Shown: piece after piece, positions 8,663 to 61,400 of the stretch
How the letters are laid out: each line of letters begins with the position of its first letter
Position numbering within the stretch: the stretch's first letter is position 1
The notes under the pieces: model-generated
Databases searched by the model: none
What the model saw: only the letters and a program-made list of their open reading frames with translations
Told to the model about the DNA's origin: nothing
Made by a program: the position numbers and the translations under genes
Assembly (NCBI GenBank): GCA_024305405.1
Contig: JAKNDB010000109.1
Coordinates: forward strand, 4,216,001 to 4,280,000
Source: Dirofilaria immitis
Lineage: Eukaryota > Nematoda > Chromadorea > Rhabditida > Onchocercidae
Reading direction: 5' to 3'
Length of the DNA stretch: 64,000 nt

Positions 8663-11600
8663 TTAATTATTGCGCGAACGATTCTCACCATAAAAAGCGA
8701 TTCCAAGGTCGTTCAAGCATTTTTGGAGATAAAAAGAGAGCATCGATGAGGCTGCTGAATGATCCTCGGCCTCTGAAAAATTTCTAAATTTTTTCTTACC
8801 ATATTTGTTCAAATTCGACATTTTTACCGCCACCGCACCAAAAATTTTGAAACTCACATTTCGAAATCTTGCAGTATAATCGCTGTTTACCTGTGTGTTC
8901 TTTAACATTACAGTTTACACAATCAGAAGTACTTTCATATTTTATTTCGTCCAAATCATCGATCGATTGATCGCTGAAGGATGCGGTCGCATTAATCGTT
9001 TCCTGCTGGTTCTCTAAGACATCTTCAGAAATTCCACTTGATCCCTAAGTGATATAACGATTATCGGCATACCATTAGCTCAAAATTATAGGTATTCTAT
9101 CAAAATATACTTCATTTTGATCAGAGAAACTTCAAATGAAAAAATTTTTACTTCGTTAGCAAGCATAGCAAGCATAGTAGTGTTAATCAGAATTCATTTT
9201 TTTTTCTTTATTTCAAGGAAAACAAGATGATAGAAGTGATTCGGTTGCGCTGCTGCAGAAACATTTTAGAGAATTTTTCTTTTTTTAAATTTTTAGATAC
9301 GGATTTTTAGAATTTATTTTTAAGAAAATGTCGCCAAATTTAATTTGGCAGTGTGTTATGTGACGATTGACTAAAGTATAATATGGAGAAATAACGTTGC
9401 AATCGAATAGAAAGATTTGATTATGAACAGTATTAGATTGACGAATTTACTTTTACCTGCTTTGGCAAATAACCGTGATGCTTGAAATCCTGAGGAATAT
9501 GGCCACTTTTCATTAGCCAGTTGATCATCTGCCATGGAACGCGACGTAATGCTCGTTCAGTGAACAATTCCCAAAAATTAGCATCTTCTGGTAATTTACT
9601 GCGAAACTTTGTTAATGCTACAAACTGAAAATGCAGGAACTTCAGACAAACAAGTTACAGAAGATTTAATTTCTAAATGTAGATTTGAACTTTCAACTTC
9701 TAATTTTTGAGCATTTTCCGAAATTTATCTCAAAATTTTGCAATAGCTACACAATTTTAGGATGGACCTGTAACATATCGCGTTCAGCTTGGCGATTCTG
9801 ATAAGAAATTCGGCCAGCTGAAAGACCCAGGCGTTCCATTTCTGCACATTCATCCTCTGTTGCAATAAATATAATTGAAAGCGGAGCTTTGGATGCAAAT
9901 ATTGTGGCCTAGATTTTCTGTCATTTGAAACTTTTTAAATTCAACAATTATAGTAAGCAGGAAAAATTTCACGCAACGCAAAATGCCAATTGTACAATTT
10001 TTCTTTTTTTTTTTAAGTTAAGATATGCGGTAATTTGAGTTAGAAACCATTTCAAATCATGTCACAAATATTTATGTCTTTTTATACCCAAGAAATGCCG
10101 TACCTGTACTGTTTCTCGTATATCACTTATTTTTCCTTTGCTAATTATTGCTAACACAAAATATGGGCATTGCAATTGATTTTCACGTTTACGTACATTG
10201 TTAGCCAACCTAAAACTTTGTATAAGAATCATGTAATAAGTATCAGCAAGTCAAAAAAGGGATAAATCAACTGATTTATTTTGCAGATATGAAATATAAT
10301 ATGAGATTTCAAACGTTTAAACTTACTTGGAGAGATGATAAATGATATGAGCAAAATGGGCAGTCGAACTAGGTTGTACTAGAGCATTCGCTTTATAGAA
10401 TGCATCAATTAAACCATCAATTCCTTGACAATTAGGATCCGTTTCCAGATTCTGCAAATGTGGTTAATAAATGATATGCCTTCAATGATTCAATGTGTGC
10501 TTGATGCTGATGATTTTAAAAAGTTCATTTCACTTCATTAAAACATCGCACACATTGCCATTTAATGGAAAGCGATACGGCTCGATGTGGTAGGAATTGT
10601 GTCATCTATCAAAAGAATAGAATGAAAGATATGTAATCCAACTTGTACTTTTTCTTTGATATATAATCGGATTTGTAAAACTGAAAGTATTATTAATTTC
10701 AATTTTTCGGAAGTATAATGAATGCCAAAAAATCTTACAAGACAAAACTGCTGCGACTTCCGAAAATATGGTGGAATTCGTGCTCCGAAACCGAAAGCTG
10801 CATAGCTTTGCGAGCTGAAATATAAAATGCATACAATGATCATTGGGGTTTTTCTGATCATTGGGGAGAATCTTATGCTTAGCTTAGAACTTTAAAACTT
10901 AGTCCAAAAGAACTTTATGAACTAGAATTTTATCAAGTATTGAGAAACTTGCAAATTATGACGTCGAAATGGTTCACAAATTGAGCGAATAACGCATTCT
11001 ACATCATTTGCAAAAGTTGCGCTTGTAGCTTTTGAATTTGATATGGAAAAATCCACTGCTATAGCAAGCGATAGACAATAACTGAAATATTTTCTAATGT
11101 TAACTGAAACTTATTTTTGTGAACTCACTATGATCAAAAAGATACCCATTCGTGATGTAATCAAGGAATGAATACATGGTGATTTCACTGCATTTGACCA
11201 CTTCAATAATACCATTTGTTTTTTTATTGCTTTCCAATCCAACTTGTAACTGAACTTATGAAAACTTTCAGTGTTATTTGAAGTTTGGAACGAAACTTTA
11301 TGTTTTACGTTGAAATCTAAGCTGGAAATCTTGATGCAAACACATGTATGGTATCGCAGAGTAATATTTCTGATAGATTCCAACGAATCGAAAAAACTTC
11401 GGCACTCCTTTGATTAATTTTTATTGTGTAATTATCTAAGCTATTGATACTCCAATAAATGGATATAACTATTAGCATAGGAAAATGACACAATAAGTAA
11501 AATTGTATTATAAAACGAACAGCTTATATAATTTTCTATTAATTTTTATTAAAATCGTAGCATTAAATGCCTACATATAAGAATTTCCGTTCTTCCGCAA

Positions 11601-45945: not shown

Positions 45946-48711
45946 ATGGATACTGCTACCTTATCAGAGAATCCACAAAAAATGAATCGAAAAAGCATTC
46001 GGGAAATTGCAGTCCTGTAAGTTTATTCTTCCTTATTTACTTATATTGTGCAATGATTGCATTTTTATCTTTATCTGTCTGGTTTTTCGGTTAGGTAAAC
46101 TTTGGTGGTATTGTTTATTTGTCAAAAATTAATTTTTCATCCCATTGTCATGCTGAAATGGTAATTATTAATGGGAAGAGAGAAAAGTAGCTCAACGGAA
46201 CATATTTTTATCAATTATCCACACCGAAATGGCAACATTAAACGAGATTATACCTACTAGTTGCTTGGAATTGAACGGTTCGACTCATCGATAAACTTAG
46301 TAGAATTGAACATAAGATTGTAGAATTATGTCGTGTAGTCATACTTGACGGCATATTGACAACAAGAATATGTTGAACCGTTTAATTCCAAGCACCTAGT
46401 AGGTATCTTGATGAAATTTATATGTTTTGTTACTACTCATCAATGATCACCCATTTCACCATTCCGTTTACATCTTTCAATTAATATCTAATAATGGTTT
46501 TTCTGTTTCTTTGAAGGAAACAGAACCATCAAATGCAGAATGTGAGGAAGCGATGAAAAAGTTTGTTCAAATCACCAGAACGGATGAAGCATGTGCACAT
46601 TTCTTTCTGCAAGATTTTAACTGGCAGTTGCAGGTAAGCATCTATTGTCGTTTCAAGAGTGGAAAGGATAAGATTATGCTTAAACTTGGTTTTCAATTTT
46701 CTTTCCTGTATATATATACTGGTCAGCTTCATCCTATTCATTCCTTTTATTATTTTAGCCAGCATTGGAACGCTTCTTCTCATATACATCAGAAGTCGAA
46801 GAAGGAACTAATTCAAAGAAAGCATCATCCCAAATTGTCATGAGTAAACTACATGAGGATTTCTCACTTACCGTTATATCATGGAATATTGATGGTCTTG
46901 ATGAAAACAATCTTGCTATTCGTTTTACTGCAATTTGCTACATAATCTCAAAGTTTGTGATATTATATTTTTATGCTCATATTCTTATTCCTTGCGTGGC
47001 ATCCAATCAGCCTACTTCGTCATAATGTGGAACACTAGCGAGACTTGAAAAGATTGGGATGTTCTCTCCGACGAATTTCATGCAAACCGAGAAATCTCGG
47101 GCATGTATTAATAAGTAAAAATTGATAGATTAATAATTAGTTAGATGAAGGAATGGTTTATTGGAATAGTGGATATATTTAGAAAATTGATTTATAACAG
47201 TGACCAGTTTTCACCATTCCTCAGTCACATCACAAGACTCTAAATGATTGACTGATTCTAATATATTCATCTTTACATAACTTAAGAAACATTAGCTTTA
47301 CTCACTGAGTTATAATTATTGATATGTATTATAATTTTCGTTGTTCAACGTGCGCGAAATTAAGGATCGCTGCTGATGTAGTTTTCTTACAAGAAATGAC
47401 GCCAGATTTGGTTCCGCAAATCAGAAAGAATTTGGGTGGTGAATATAATATCTTAGTCGCAACTCCAAATTTGCCATATTTTACTGTCGTTCTCCTAAAA
47501 CCATTAATCGAATTGATCTCACATAAAGCGATCCCATATAGACGTTCAGGGATGGGAAGATCAATGCAGCTTGTGGAGGTGAGTTTAGAAAGAATTTCTT
47601 AATTGGTTTGAACAGCAGAAATTTTTTTAACTTTTCTGTTCTTGTTTTTAAAAAACAATGATTTAAACTGATTTTTCTGGATTTTCTTCAGCTTGCATTT
47701 TCTTCGGGCATGCTATACTTCTTACTTTGAATAAATTGGGCGTGAACTAACCAATAATGTAGTGTTTGTTTTGCAGACTTCTTTACATGGGCGCAAAGTC
47801 ATGTTACTAAATACACATCTAGAAAGTATGAAGGAACATTCTGATATAAGAATCGCACAAATCGAAGAATGTTTTGAACAGCTGACTGAATGGGATGATG
47901 GCAAAACTGTTATCATTTTTGGAGGCGATCTCAATGCTCGCAATACTGAGGTAGGAAATCACACGTTTATCCAAATGTACATTGCGTTTTTCTTGATTTT
48001 GAAAAAATACTAAGTACTCTGGTAGTTTTGGTATATCGGACTTATTTTGAGATACTGAGTATCAGAAAGTGAAAGAATTTTGCTATTTTATATTTGGTTC
48101 TTTTTTCTACTTTTTAGTGAAAGGAGTATAGAATGCTAAAATATCCTCCTATCAAAGTTTTTAGTATTTTTTTTCATTCGTACATATCTTTTAAAATATA
48201 GATTGGCGAACTTCCCGCTGGATTCGAGGATGCATGGATTGCTGCGGGGTCAAAATCAAAATTTAAGTTTACTTGGGACACTTTACTGAATGACAATAAA
48301 GCTACTGGAAAAGCCCGATGCCGTTTTGATCGCATTATCTACAAAAGGTATGTTAAGATTTCCAGCGGCCATTAAATTAATGCAGTCAGCTCCATTTTAC
48401 ATACAAAGCTGAAAAGTTGTTTTTCATCTTTATTGACCATACGCTTTGAATTTTTATGAACAATCATGTAAGTCATTATTTCTGAAAGTATTTTGATACC
48501 AAGAAGTCAGCAGTTATAAAACGCTAATTATATTAATCTATGGATTAGGCTCGAAAATCATAAAAATATGTTTTTATTCCAAACAGTTTTTGCTGTTTCT
48601 AGTGCTGGTGTCTTCTCGAAAGTGAATTTTTCGCTTGAAGGACAGAACAGAATTCGTACCTCACTTTGCTTCCCAAGTGATCACTGGGCCATTCTTGTTC
48701 ATTTTCACTGA
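45946..48711 (+). CDS. tdpt-1: Tyrosyl-DNA phosphodiesterase 2
   Basis: Removes 5'-tyrosyl adducts left by trapped topoisomerase 2. Exons: 45946-46016, 46517-46633, 46759-46952, 47365-47578, 47777-47950, 48202-48347 and 48603-48711. An N-terminal UBA-like helix set (FVQITRTDEACAHFFLQDFN, ALERFFSY) precedes an exonuclease-endonuclease-phosphatase fold. The catalytic motifs are all present: SWNIDGLDENN, VVFLQEM, NTHLESMKEH, FGGDLNARN and SDHWAILVHF. This matches TDP2 in domain order and in the four signature motifs. All splice phases agree except exon 1 to 2, which fits if one A is missing in the run at 45990-45994. Intron 1 contains a MITE. If exon 1 is wrong, translation could start at ATG 46552 in exon 2. 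Confidence 0.95.
46250..46406. mobile_element. MITE with 32-bp inverted repeats in TDP2 intron 1
   Basis: The left end ATACCTACTAGTTGCTTGGA (46250, continuing to about 46281) is mirrored by TCCAAGCACCTAGTAGGTAT ending at 46406. Over 32 bases the two ends differ at two positions. The element is 157 bp with no coding capacity. If the ends are CCTACTAG...CTAGTAGG, it is flanked by TA on both sides, as for Tc1/mariner-type elements. Confidence 0.8.
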
Positions 48712-50601: not shown

Positions 50602-53600
50602 ATGTATTCCTCCTGTCTTCATTATTACTCTCATCAGTTACTACTCTTTGCGATTTTTCATTTTTAAATACTTTTACATTTTCTCTAACCCAATGCCCGC
50701 CACTTCAACCACCTTGTCGTTGTGCACCGTCTGTTCACGAACCCGTTGCCATCATTTGTGAAAATGCATCCACTTTATCCAATATATTGACTGCCATAGT
50801 GGAAGCTCGCAGTATCACGGTATGTTATCATTTATTCACACAATTCCTCCTATATACTTAACGATAAAATTTTAAGATTCATTTTTTGAATGAGATGAAA
50901 ATGGTCAATTATTTATTTATCTGTTTGATCCATTATATAAACTACTAAAAATTTTTTGAAATTCCGAAATCTAGAAATTCATTAATTTTATCAAAATTTG
51001 TATCCCTGCATTCCACCTTACCAGTCAGGAAAGTTTTTAAAAGAAAAACTAAAATTTTTTCAGCTTAAAACTTAATCAAAGTACCAATAATTCAACATCA
51101 TTTCAGATAGCTGTTCTTCATATTACGGACACCATAATTCCAATTCTTCCACCTTACATATTTCAAGACTTTACTATTTCACGATTAGTTCTGAACCGAT
51201 GCAATTTGAACCACATAGATGACAAAGCATTTTTTGGAGCAAGTTTGAATAAACTGATCGATTTGGACCTTTCTGATAATCAATTAGGTGCAATACCTAC
51301 AGCTGGTGTCCCACGTTTGACTAATCTCAGGAGACTATCCCTAAATCGAAATCGCATTAGTCAATTGCAGTCCAATTCATTCATAAATTATGAATCACGA
51401 AATGTACTGCAAAAACTGGAATTAGCCGGAAATCGACTCACAGATCAAATTCTCGATGATTCACTTGTTTTTAGACCATTACGTTCTCTACAACAGCTAA
51501 GCTTGGAAACCAACGCATTGAATATTATCCCATCTGCCTCATTAGTTAATCAACGACAAACACTGACTAATCTGAATTTGGGTTTAAATCAAATTCATGA
51601 TGTCCCTGCTGGCATCTTAGATTTTCCAAATCTCAATTCGCTTTCACTTGAATTCAATGGTATTTCACAAATCATTCCGCAAGCATTTCAAGGGATACCT
51701 AATCTTGAGCATTTGTATCTCACGGGTAACAAATTTCCTTCCTGGCAGCCTGAAATGTTTACATTTATTCCACATCTGTTAACCTTAGGTATTGGTGAAA
51801 CTCCAATTGCCGTGATACCATCAAACGCTTTTCAGGTAATTACAGCAAATTTATCAGATAAAAAACCGTCATCAATTTTCTCTCGTTTCTATGATTCGAG
51901 AATAGTAAGTGGATCTAGTTTATCAATTTTCTTATTAATTGTTATTTTTCCTATATTTTAATATTTTTATTTCTCCACTTTTTTTAAATTATCTCGACCT
52001 TGCACTTCCATCCGAATCATTGCTCTCATAAATTATCAGTCGTGATGTCATTAAGACCAAGATACACTTATACTTGTTTCATTTTGCATTAGATTTACAT
52101 TCTTTTTATTTTTTAAATCTTTCCTACTGAGTCTTGCTGTCATATTTCTTCAAATTAACGATTATTTTTGTCCTGACACTATTCTACCGTTCCAAGTAAC
52201 TAAACAACTTTTCTAGATCAAGAAACATAAACCATTTAGCACAGTGAAATTCGAAATAAACTGTGATTACTCAAACTGTCATTTTTGTCAAATCAAATTA
52301 TTTGATAACTTGGAAACTAATCTTCAAAATTTATTTAAAACATAAAATACAAATTTACTGCAGTACATATCCAAGTTAATACGTTTGGAAATGTCCGAAG
52401 CAGCTGTTGATACAATTGAGCTAGGTGTTTTCCAGAGAACACCAAATATTCAGGCGATTATTTTGAATAAGAATCGTCTTTCTGTGTGAGTTTGAGCTTT
52501 CTAATTTCTGCGTAAATCATTGAAGAAAAAAATCAAAAATCAACCTTTGAAAAGAAGACTAAGAATTAAGAAATAAAGGCTTATACATTCATCGTCGAAC
52601 AAATCTTTCCTGAGCAATAATGAGGTAATAATGAAGTGAGCACTACGCCATTCACGTATGCAGTAGACCCTGCATCCCGTTTAATCTTGGCTCTTATGTG
52701 AATTATTGCATGTTTGTTTATTTTTCAATGTTATATAACAGAAATTGTTGCCGCACGGATTTGCGTTTTTTAGGATACGTTCCGACTACTTTAAAGGCCT
52801 GAATCACTTATATTCAGTGAATCTGGGCGGCAATCGCATTGATACATCTGAACCATTCGCCTTCGCAAATCTTCCACAAATGAATCATCTTGACATTAGG
52901 TCCTTTTCCACATTGCCCTAATTTTTCATCACTTACTAAGTAGACATTTTAGAAGTTTCAATCAATCTTCAAATTCCATATCTTGATTAGGTAGTATTTA
53001 AAATTGGAATCGCTCACCTTCCTCAAATACTTAATTAACTGCAAAGACAGTATCGAAATAATTCACCTGTTTTTCCACTCATCAGGTAACCAATTTTAGT
53101 TTTAATCAGCTTCAAACGTTACCAGACAATACGTTTACAAATTCATTTTTACCGGATCCAAATGAACGGCGTATCATGTATGTATGCGGCAACCCTTGGT
53201 TATGTAATTCAGCTCTAAAGTGGTTTCGAGTTTATCTACGAGAAAACGTTGATATTGACATCGACAAACCTGGATGCGTTGCTGTCTGTGTTGACAGTGT
53301 TACTGGTTGTCCTTCAGTTGGCACCCCATTACGAGCAGTGGATTACTGTCCAGCCAACGATATATCTCTCCCACTAACTCGCAGTTCGTTATCATTCGTT
53401 GGTTGGATTATTCTAGGTTGGTATTTACGTAATTCTTTATATTAAAAACAGCGCTCCGTATTGCTCCGAGATGGAACACAAAATCTAAATTCTCAAGTCC
53501 AAAACTTTGTATTTCTTGAATTGATTAGTATGAGTTTCAGAAATACTTCAGCGCCAAACTCTTACATTTTGCAGCTATCATAATGACAATTTTGTTGATC

Positions 53601-54658: not shown

Positions 54659-58023
<3,365 letters not shown>

Positions 58024-58300
58024 TTTACATTCCAGTGATTACGCGCTCATTCTATATTTTTAGGTCTGCTATATCAACGACAAGTACTAAAACAAATTTT
58101 ACGTGAAATGAGAAGATCCCTGAACTCATGGAAAGTGGTGTAATATATTGAAAGAATTCTTACAGCAAAAAGTTAACAAGCAAATAAAACTATAAAAAAT
58201 CAATCGAAAAGTATGTAAGGCAACTATAATAACTGTGACCGTAATATCCACTATAACCACTACTTCTCCATCTTGCCTCTCACCCCTTCCCGATCCCCCA
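58024..58300. promoter_or_regulatory. Region upstream of copine 2
   Basis: About 280 bp between the copine 2 start and the uS19 fragment. It includes a C-rich patch (TCACCCCTTCCCGATCCCCC) directly beside the bacterial-like sequence. No defined motif. Confidence 0.3.
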
Positions 58301-58480
58301 ATAAGAATTCATTCTAGAGCTTCTGTAATTCTTCCTAATTGTTTAGGCTTAAGATTTGCTGTTTATAACGGTAAGGATTATGTTCCTGTTAATGTTAATG
58401 ATCAAAATATGATAGGTTATAAATCTGGTGAATTTTCACCTACTCGTAAATTTAATGGACACAGTGGTGATAACGAATTC
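58301..58480 (+). pseudogene. rpsS: Bacterial ribosomal protein uS19 (rpsS) fragment, probable Wolbachia nuclear insertion
   Basis: An open stretch of 60 codons matches the core of bacterial uS19: [18 protein letters not shown], then [26 protein letters not shown] and GHSGDN. These correspond to about residues 30-88 of the usual 92. The N-terminal third and the last residues are missing, there is no start codon of its own, and the frame then runs into unrelated sequence. Eukaryotic cytosolic uS19 (RPS15) is clearly different and, as far as I know, animal mitochondrial ribosomes have no uS19, so a bacterial source is the only good explanation. In nematodes the likely donor is Wolbachia. It lies between repeats-poor intergenic DNA and copine 2 and is intact over its length, so it is either fairly young or slowly decaying. 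Confidence 0.85.
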
Positions 58481-61400
58481 TTACGAATTCAAAAACTCGT
58501 TCTGATAAAAATGTATGAAGCACTCTGACCAACACTCACAAGGACAATTTGCAAAAATATAATCCCTTAGCTAAGGTCAAGTCGTTATGTGGTTAAGGCG
58601 ATTTCTGCACAAGTTTTTTGCATATTTTAGCGAAGCAAATGTGCATAAATGTCCAGTTCAGAGGAATTGCCTGTAATTTAGCTGAATAATGCAAAAACAT
58701 GCTTTGTATGGAGTTCAAGAAAAAACTAATTCCGTGAAAAAATTGAATTGAACTTTTGACCTTTTCTAGGTCAAAAGAAATTCATCGGGATGTTCTAATT
58801 TCTTTGTGTGGTTATCAATGTTTGGAACAACTTAATGAATACCTGAGATGATCGCAATCCTGGAAATCTCGCTCTTATAAGGTCTAATGAACACTTCGCT
58901 TTCGAGACATTTATGGAGAATATATTTCATTGAATCATATGCAAAATAAGGTTTTGAATTTTGAATGAATTTTATTGGACAATATCTAAAAGAAACAGCC
59001 CAAAATTTTAAAACCGTATCAGCTATAATGATAAATATGATGGATTTTATTATTATTTTCCTACGTAAAATGATAAATTGGCTAGCAGAATGAGACTCCT
59101 GGAAAATGAAACACTCTGCATTTATCTGGGTAGGATTTTTATTGCACTATTAATTTCATCTATTAAAAGTGGTGGCATAACTGAGCAATACATCATCACG
59201 AGCTGATTTCTATAAGGTTGCTACCGTAAACTGCTTTGCACCATTAACATTGTGATAGTCATCTGAAAACATAAAACATACGTTTTTGCATATATGTTTT
59301 TATTACAATATCCGTGCTGCTACACTTCATTGTTGAACCAACACAACAGTCTGCAGTACTTGAAGAAAATTATTTAGAATACAGCGATCACTTCGTAGAT
59401 CTTCAAAATTATCGTTGAAACGATTAATATAAAAATAACACTATTGCCCACATATAAAAGCTTAATCTGTTCTCGAAATATCAACATTTTATTTCGCATT
59501 GCATCCATACTAAAATATATTAATTAATTAAATAAGGATCAGGTTGTCATTCGAATAAGTTTACATTGAAAGTTAAGTTGTAAATAACAGACGACTACGT
59601 GTACTATAGTATGCTTTGAATCAGATTATGATGCAACAACATCGCTAATCTCCTAAAAAAATCCTGCTAAGCAACTTTTGATCACACAATCACTTACACC
59701 TTTGTGAACTGTGCACCTTGTCTTCGTCACACTACTGTTCGAAAGACAATGTACACTAAACAAAAAGTAGTAGAAATGGATATTGCGAACATCTTTCATT
59801 TGATCATAAGCATTCTTCCTAATAATGCGAAAATATTTTCTATTTAATCTCCCTCATATTAAGGCTTACAATCATTACATTAAATTCGGATACTCCTATA
59901 TCTGAAGAAATAGTACCATTGGCGATTAAAGGCAGAAAAATTACTGCAGAGGAAAAAATGCCATTTATCCTCTTTATTCATTTATTCTTCAAATGATGGA
60001 TGAAAATTTCTAAAAAAAATGCGAGAAATTCATTTCATCAAAAATATTAAAATGATAAATGTTACCTACATAATATAGCCCGCTAAATTGACGATATCAA
60101 ATATGTTTATGTTAACTTTATTATTAACTAAGGTGCAATTATATTTGCACGTACATTGGTTTTTACCTTATTTCTTACGTCAGATTAAATTGGATTTGAA
60201 AGTTTGGATTAGTTTCGGAAAATCTGCTTGATAAATTTTACAATGCATTCACGTTGCCTACTTTTCAAGTGTACAATGCTTGCAATATTTGGTTACTAAT
60301 TTTATTTTTGCTAATCACTCATAGAAATTTATTGAAATTTTTAGAACTCAGTTAATATTTCTTAGAAACACTTCTACCTAGTAGGTGGAGACTGATCCAA
60401 CTGATCCATGATTACAACTTCGAAAAACTAGGAAGAATTTGTTTCAGAGAGATTACAGAATCCGTAAGCAAAATTTTGACGTGTCGATTTCCAAAACATT
60501 CAGTCTTTTCTTAAAAACTATTACAGTCGGTAATGCTAGGAATTAGGAATTGTTTTGCGTCGAGGAAGAATATTTCATCTATTATACTGGGAAATACTAA
60601 AAGTTAAATCTTAATCTTGAAAAGAAATGCCCAATGTTATTTAGCTTGTTTTGTTGATAATATTGATACTGATTACGCAAAAATTGTCATAACCATAGAA
60701 ATCCGTATCTATTCAAGTAAGTTAATTACTTGTTAATTAACAACTGAAGCTTTTTTGCATAAATCTCAGCATAGGTAAAATATCATGACGGTTAAGTCAA
60801 TTACTTAATAAAATTTGAATTACTTTGTTTCATTGAAAATAAGTAATTCCGCATTTTTGTTAATAAATAATGCTAGACCTGAAGTCTTATTTTATCCCAA
60901 TTTTACAGGTGCTCTTTCAATAAGAGACTCATAGTTCTGGAAATTAGAAGAAAAACTTCAACTAAAATATTTTCGATAATACCAACCAACAATATAAGGT
61001 GTAATTTGAAAGCAGCTAGCAATTTCGTCGACTAATTTTTTAAAATTATTTCTTAAAATTGACTAGATGGTATATTTACAGTAAATTGTAGGAATCGCTT
61101 AAAAATAAATTAACGTTTCAGATACGGGATGCAAAAATCATTTTATTTAAGGAGTTGTTTTTACAAAATTTTCGGAAAACGGCATTTTTTATAGCAGAAC
61201 TTATAGCAGCAATAGACAATGACTGCCAAATATAATATACAATCATATGTAAAACAATCATTTAATTTTATAATTAAATTCAAATCAAATTCATATTTCT
61301 TGGAAAAAAATCCTTTGATCTAACGTTCTCAAATTACGTCACAATCATAAGTATAAACTGAACTGTTTTAATTGCTAGCTTGACACAGAAAACATTAGTC

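What the first reader, a model, noticed from the sequence alone, without database searches (positions are those of the whole stretch)
58301..58480. Bacterial (Wolbachia-like) rpsS fragment in a nematode chromosome next to a copine promoter
Sixty codons of bacterial uS19 with all core motifs sit about 280 bp upstream of a host gene start, on the opposite strand. The stretch has no stop codon and reads in one frame, unlike most decayed transfers. A nuclear Wolbachia transfer would tell whether the species has, or once had, the endosymbiont.
Basis: partly seen in the sequence, partly recalled or inferred. Interest (0 to 1): 0.8.

Follow-up and report, generated by a model that had tools for sequence, protein, structure and literature searches.

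The report
Short Wolbachia gene fossil in heartworm
A 174-base scrap of a ribosomal gene from the worm's own bacterial symbiont has been pasted into a chromosome of what is almost certainly the dog heartworm; it is real but ordinary, one of many such dead fragments in that genome.

Summary
Window 58300-58473 (+) is 174 bp of Wolbachia rpsS (within codons 31-89 of 94). It is 171/174 identical, without gaps, to wDi, the Wolbachia of Dirofilaria immitis; the next best of six other named genomes is 92%. It lies inside a 6.83-Mb contig of an 86.7-Mb nematode assembly, 277 bp upstream of the putative start of a minus-strand copine gene.

In-silico ITS2 PCR and assembly size point to D. immitis as host, a species known to carry wDi and 483 nuclear Wolbachia transfer (NUWT) regions. 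Three 10-kb wDi probes gave 54 matches in this assembly, so about one per 64 kb is average.

The open frame is not remarkable. With three substitutions there is an 89% chance of no stop. The fragment lacks a start, 30 N-terminal codons and the C-terminus, and one change puts Ser where 32 of 32 relatives have Phe or Leu. Two other short young inserts are open too.

Best reading: a young, non-functional NUWT captured during end-joining repair. Interest is low. One loose end is a possible templated filler at the right junction.

The parts
58300..58473 (+). nuclear Wolbachia transfer: 174 bp of rpsS (uS19), codon 31 (third base) to codon 89 (second base) of 94; 57 complete codons
   Evidence: 171/174 identical, no gap, to wDi 269133-269306; PF00203 E 1.3e-20
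58418..58418 (+). C>T, changes the His of MIGHKFGEF to Tyr; nuclear-side change
   Evidence: all 11 Wolbachia-type rows (wDi included) carry C; the distant Neoehrlichia row carries A. In 32 protein relatives with the motif the residue is His 27, Arg 3, Tyr 1, Met 1
58425..58425 (+). T>C, changes the Phe of MIGHKFGEF to Ser; nuclear-side change
   Evidence: all 11 Wolbachia-type rows carry T; residue is Phe 27, Leu 5, Ser 0 of 32
58462..58462 (+). T>C, synonymous; nuclear-side change
   Evidence: all 11 Wolbachia-type rows carry T
58299..58300 (.). left junction, host / Wolbachia, no base shared with the wDi sequence beyond it
58473..58474 (.). right junction, Wolbachia / host or filler
58474..58492 (+). 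possible filler at the right junction: ACGAATTC occurs at 58473 and 58483 and nowhere else on the + strand of the window (5 places on the - strand); 58475-58484 repeats host 58154-58163 exactly
   Evidence: 144 of 5,000 random window positions show a repeat this long, so suggestive only
54659..55027 (-). copine gene, exon region (Copine / VWA domain)
   Evidence: PF07002 E 3.7e-31
55276..55503 (-). copine gene, exon region
   Evidence: PF07002 E 4.7e-9
57316..57507 (-). copine gene, C2-domain exon region (weak)
   Evidence: PF00168 E 4.5e-4, 20.8 bits, below the 22-bit cut-off
57989..58023 (-). putative first coding exon of the copine gene (starts [12 protein letters not shown], followed by a GT donor)
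   Evidence: read from sequence; inferred, no transcript evidence

Best explanation
A nuclear Wolbachia transfer (NUWT) in Dirofilaria immitis. A short piece of wDi chromosome reached a germ-line nucleus and was joined into a double-strand break by end joining. It has since drifted neutrally and does nothing: it has no start codon, both ends of the protein are missing, and an otherwise Phe/Leu residue has become Ser. Shown here: source, extent, host flanks, polarity of the three changes, abundance of similar inserts. Inferred: the repair route, neutrality, lack of expression, fixation in the species.
For: Identity 171/174 to wDi, next best 92%; in the tree the insert groups with wDi, ultrafast bootstrap 94 and SH-aLRT 85, just short of the tool's star. 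All three differences are on the nuclear side (11 of 11 Wolbachia-type rows, wDi included, keep the wDi state). The insert sits inside a 6,827,947-bp contig, and the 1,201 bp around it found only themselves in the assembly (that search skips very common words). Three 10-kb wDi probes, one with the rps operon, find only short pieces of 37-447 bp and no live Wolbachia contig, so the insert is not stray symbiont sequence. Host: ITS2 amplicons of 526, 533 and 537 bp against published 542 (D. immitis), 484 (D. repens) and 577 (A. reconditum), and a primer recalled as D. immitis-specific matches exactly at 3 places, inside those three amplicons; assembly 86,694,620 bp against 86,813,779 for GCA_024305405.1. 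Other NUWTs: 54 matches to three probes, this insert among them, 73-100% identity.
Against: No reads across the junctions were seen, so misassembly is made unlikely but not excluded. ITS2 sizes are 5 to 16 bp below the published 542, and genome size alone is not diagnostic: Brugia malayi spans 87.2 Mb and newer D. immitis assemblies 94 Mb. Four of the seven coding fragments at 95% identity or more are broken and this one is not. Tyr at the His position is seen in 1 of 32 relatives, so that change need not be damaging. No empty site from another individual or species was available, so the repair route is untested. No transcript data.
Confidence: 0.95

Rival explanations
1. Contamination or misassembly: live wDi sequence wrongly joined into a nematode contig.
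For: D. immitis DNA preparations would contain live wDi (established knowledge), and the match is 98%.
Against: Three substitutions absent from all 11 Wolbachia-type rows compared; a 174-bp piece with host sequence on both sides deep in a 6.83-Mb contig; many comparable pieces at 73-100% identity, which chimeras from one live strain would not give.
Confidence: 0.03
2. A domesticated fragment: the insert is transcribed or translated, or was kept as regulatory DNA for the copine gene.
For: Stop-free frame of 110 codons including flanks; 277 bp upstream of the putative copine start.
Against: First in-frame Met of the frame is residue 37 of the 57 complete Wolbachia codons, so only 39 codons could be read from an ATG; N-terminal third missing; one of three substitutions puts Ser where 32 of 32 relatives have Phe or Leu; an open frame is expected at this age (P 0.89).
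Confidence: 0.02
3. Transfer from a Wolbachia other than wDi, for example the supergroup F strain inferred for Dirofilaria. (Not exclusive with the best explanation: it would be a NUWT with another donor.)
For: Supergroup F NUWTs exist in D. immitis (58 of 483, 12%, PMC12693587), and L035 in this assembly is F-like.
Against: This insert is 98.3% to wDi and 91.9% to the supergroup F wOc.
Confidence: 0.03

Closest known systems
NUWTs of Dirofilaria immitis (Vancaester et al. 2025, PMC12693587)
   Same: Same host species by the evidence here, probably the same assembly; short fragments, mostly supergroup C, scattered through the nuclear genome; 483 regions reported.
   Different: No difference found.
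Wolbachia transfers in Brugia, Onchocerca and Wolbachia-free filariae
   Same: Same process of symbiont DNA caught in the nuclear genome and decaying.
   Different: Supergroup D inserts in Brugia are longer (mean 2,038 bp); supergroup C inserts in Onchocerca average 434 bp.
NUMTs (nuclear mitochondrial DNA)
   Same: Organelle DNA joined into breaks by non-homologous end joining, per the review PMC3798261 (passages seen).
   Different: Donor here is a bacterium, not the mitochondrion; the joining route is inferred.

Membership tests
Nuclear Wolbachia transfer (NUWT) | sequence nests within Wolbachia, closer than to any other bacterium or to a host gene | tested here: met
   98% wDi, 88-92% five other Wolbachia, 75% Neoehrlichia; tree; 33 protein relatives, every named one Wolbachia or Rickettsiales
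Nuclear Wolbachia transfer (NUWT) | embedded in host nuclear sequence on both sides | tested here: met
   6.83-Mb contig, flanks found once, copine gene adjacent
Nuclear Wolbachia transfer (NUWT) | reads or PCR cross both junctions | not testable with these tools
   no reads are held
Nuclear Wolbachia transfer (NUWT) | nuclear-side mutations without coding constraint | tested here: inconclusive
   3 nuclear-side changes, 2 non-synonymous, one of them to a residue seen in 0 of 32 relatives; too few changes to be decisive
Functional bacterial-to-animal gene transfer | complete or host-adapted reading frame with a start | tested here: not met
   30 N-terminal codons and the C-terminus absent, no in-frame ATG ahead of the insert
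Functional bacterial-to-animal gene transfer | transcription and a product | not testable with these tools
   no RNA-seq or proteome held
Polymerase theta (templated) end joining scar | filler at the junction copied from nearby sequence | tested here: inconclusive
   10-nt exact repeat at the right junction, none longer than 6 nt at the left; 144 of 5,000 random positions match as well as the right one

The most novel reading that the evidence does not exclude
The right junction carries a templated filler copied from host DNA about 150 bp to the left of the insert, which would make this insert a product of polymerase theta end joining. If the same scar recurs at the many other NUWTs of this genome, theta-mediated repair would be the main route by which symbiont DNA enters filarial chromosomes.
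Probability: 0.15. Interest if true: 0.35.

Novelty: new member of a known kind. Interest (0 to 1): 0.12.

Why it matters
It confirms that a tool-free reader picked out a genuine nuclear Wolbachia fragment. Biologically it is one more NUWT in a species already known to carry hundreds. Its only wider use is as a scar: three nuclear-side changes in 174 bp make it younger than most of the fragments it was compared with (18 of the other 19 are less similar to wDi), and its clean edges could help to test how symbiont DNA is joined into filarial chromosomes.

Tried and rejected
Contamination was considered and rejected (see rivals). Functional retention was considered and rejected on anatomy, not on expression data. 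A second Wolbachia piece continuing the insert was sought with short-word BLAST of 60- and 120-bp flanks against wDi. Three of the four flanks gave only chance-level matches (best E 0.14, 0.31 and 0.54); the 120-bp left flank had one 18-nt exact match, E 0.001, at wDi 449007, AT-rich and about 100 bp from the junction. An overlapping stretch (window 58175-58212) also had a weak 85% match over 39 bp, E 5.1e-4, to the Litomosoides brasiliensis Wolbachia. I take both for AT-rich chance matches and did not pursue them. Target-site duplication: none of 9 nt or more flanks the insert; shorter ones only looked for by eye. Rfam and tRNA scans of the window were empty (the tRNA scan used the bacterial code). 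My first stop count used a wrong start for rpsJ and reported false stops there; it was corrected, which is the count used. In one search I kept 20 main fragments (E below 1e-15); dropped were L037 and L038 (weaker), L039 (overlaps L036) and secondary pieces in the same loci. Of the 20, 19 have at least 10 coding codons; the open ones were tested over 57 (this insert), 14 (L029) and 37 (L032) codons only.

An age in years is not given: 3 changes in 174 bp has a Poisson 95% range of 0.0036-0.050 per site, and no mutation rate for this species was looked up.

Full report
Observation. The stop-to-stop frame 58196-58528 (+) holds a partial ribosomal protein uS19: Pfam PF00203, E 1.3e-20, over residues 33-89. 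At DNA level the similarity has sharp edges. Window 58300-58473 matches positions 269133-269306 of the wDi chromosome (Wolbachia of Dirofilaria immitis, strain FR3, NZ_CP046578.1) at 171 of 174 bases without gaps; just outside, similarity stops on both sides. The full 920,122-bp wDi chromosome against the full window gave this single hit at E <= 1e-3, and the reversed window gave none. In rpsS terms the piece runs from the third base of codon 31 to the second base of codon 89 of 94 and has 57 complete codons.

Source. Of seven genomes searched, wDi is best (98%), then two at 92%, then 91, 89 and 88% for the other Wolbachia, and 75% for Neoehrlichia. A maximum-likelihood tree of 13 rows pairs the insert with wDi (ultrafast bootstrap 94, SH-aLRT 85; not starred by the tool, which wants 95 and 80) on an end branch of 0.021 against 0 for wDi. 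At each of the three differing sites all 11 Wolbachia-type rows (wDi included; three are unnamed Rickettsiales bins) share one base, so the changes happened on the nuclear side. They are C>T at 58418 (His to Tyr), T>C at 58425 (Phe to Ser) and T>C at 58462 (synonymous). The protein search listed 33 relatives, all with the S19 Pfam domain; every row that bears a name is Wolbachia or Rickettsiales, the best being 93% (wDi is not among the cluster names shown). In the 32 of these with the GEF motif the His position is His in 27, Arg in 3, Tyr in 1 and Met in 1; the Phe position is Phe in 27 and Leu in 5, never Ser.

Host. The window is G000:C60:4216001-4280000, in an assembly of 86,694,620 bp and 65 contigs; C60 is 6,827,947 bp. 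The published D. immitis assembly GCA_024305405.1 spans 86,813,779 bp (PMC12693587 Table 1); size alone is not diagnostic, as B. malayi spans 87.2 Mb there and newer D. immitis assemblies are about 94 Mb. In-silico PCR with the pan-filarial ITS2 primers gives products of 526, 533 and 537 bp on contigs C3, C10 and C57 (of 4 forward and 6 reverse sites, 3 pairs face each other at this distance). Published sizes are 542 (D. immitis), 484 (D. repens) and 577 (A. reconditum) (PMC10636073, passage). A primer I recall as D. immitis-specific matches exactly at 3 places, one in each amplicon; its use in two papers was seen only as a search listing. I take the host to be D. immitis; that the assembly is the very one named above is inferred.

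Surroundings. On the minus strand lies a copine gene: PF07002 at 54659-55027 (E 3.7e-31) and 55276-55503 (E 4.7e-9), and a sub-threshold C2 match at 57316-57507; the other 5 of 8 stretches submitted had no match. A plausible first exon begins at 58023, 277 bp from the insert; this is by eye. The 1,201 bp 57700-58900 found only themselves in the assembly (that search skips very common words). No tRNA or Rfam family was found in the window.

Is it special among its kind? No. Three 10-kb stretches of wDi gave 23, 15 and 16 matches in this assembly at E <= 1e-3, 54 in all, this insert among them, 73-100% identical and 37-447 bp long; a few are two parts of one insert and some are short and weak. 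Scaled to 920 kb this is roughly 1,650 pieces, or about 1.2 per 64-kb window, a crude figure. Of 20 main fragments from the first probe, 19 cover coding sequence and 3 have neither stop nor frameshift: this one (98.3%), L029 (97.1%, 14 codons tested) and L032 (96.5%, 37 codons), all under 180 bp. Youth and shortness explain this one: of 513 single substitutions in the 57 wDi codons 20 make a stop, so three random changes leave it open 89% of the time (indels not modelled).

Function. There is no ATG in frame ahead of the insert; the first Met of the long frame is residue 37 of the 57 complete codons and would give 39 codons. The piece lacks the first 30 codons and the end of uS19. I conclude that it makes no working protein. 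Effects on copine expression were not testable.

How it got there. No base at either edge continues the wDi sequence, and no flanking direct repeat of 9 nt or more was found. This fits end joining of free symbiont DNA into a break; a review gives that route for mitochondrial DNA (PMC3798261, passages). At the right edge, GAATTCTTAC (58475-58484) exactly repeats host 58154-58163, about 150 bp left of the insert. ACGAATTC occurs twice at the edge and nowhere else on the + strand, but at five places on the - strand. A repeat as long within 350 bp is found for 144 of 5,000 random positions (2.9%), and the left edge shows none beyond 6 nt. The test was chosen after seeing the repeat, so templated filler is only suggested.

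Known context. Vancaester et al. 2025 report 483 NUWT regions in D. immitis, 85% from supergroup C and 12% from F (PMC12693587; abstract, Results, Discussion part 1 and two Methods sections read). [quoted passage not shown] immitis, with only 9 potentially full-length genes (PMC4289336, passage). Whether this locus is listed was not checked, because supplementary look-ups are capped at zero here; a paper that I recall as the 2012 D. immitis genome is not held.

Verdict. Real, correctly recognised, ordinary: a young, dead NUWT of supergroup C origin. Interest 0.12.

Noticed in passing
L035 (G000:C10:2828352-2828461): An rplE fragment that is closer to a Rickettsiales bin Spi319 (89.8% over 118 bp) and to supergroup F wOc (82.5% over 160 bp) than to wDi (80.5% over 118 bp): a candidate supergroup F transfer, 1 of 20 main fragments of the probe; published share is 12%.
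   Followed up: partly
L036 and L039 (G000:C11:592398-592535): Two adjacent pieces match the same part of rplF (9124-9200 and 9127-9165 of L001), so a NUWT that looks partly duplicated in tandem.
   Followed up: no
window 58151-58163 and 58472-58484: A 13-nt near repeat (12 of 13) between host DNA left of the insert and its right junction; possible templated filler.
   Followed up: partly
window 58175-58212: AT-rich host flank with weak matches to two Wolbachia genomes (18 nt exact to wDi, E 0.001; 39 bp at 85% to the L. brasiliensis strain, E 5.1e-4); probably chance.
   Followed up: no
window 51053-51958 and 52739-52918: Plus-strand leucine-rich-repeat gene (LRR_8, E 1.4e-26 and 4e-8), about 1.7 kb beyond the last copine stretch found.
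   Followed up: no
window 47735-48010: Plus-strand stretch with a sub-threshold endonuclease/exonuclease/phosphatase match (PF22669 E 5.1e-5); by eye it and its neighbours resemble TDP2.
   Followed up: no
G000:C7:68691, C10:28931, C10:3591970, C16:1080546: Single ITS2-primer sites without an exact partner, and three amplicon sizes (526, 533, 537 bp): scattered or partial rDNA copies of unequal length in this assembly.
   Followed up: no
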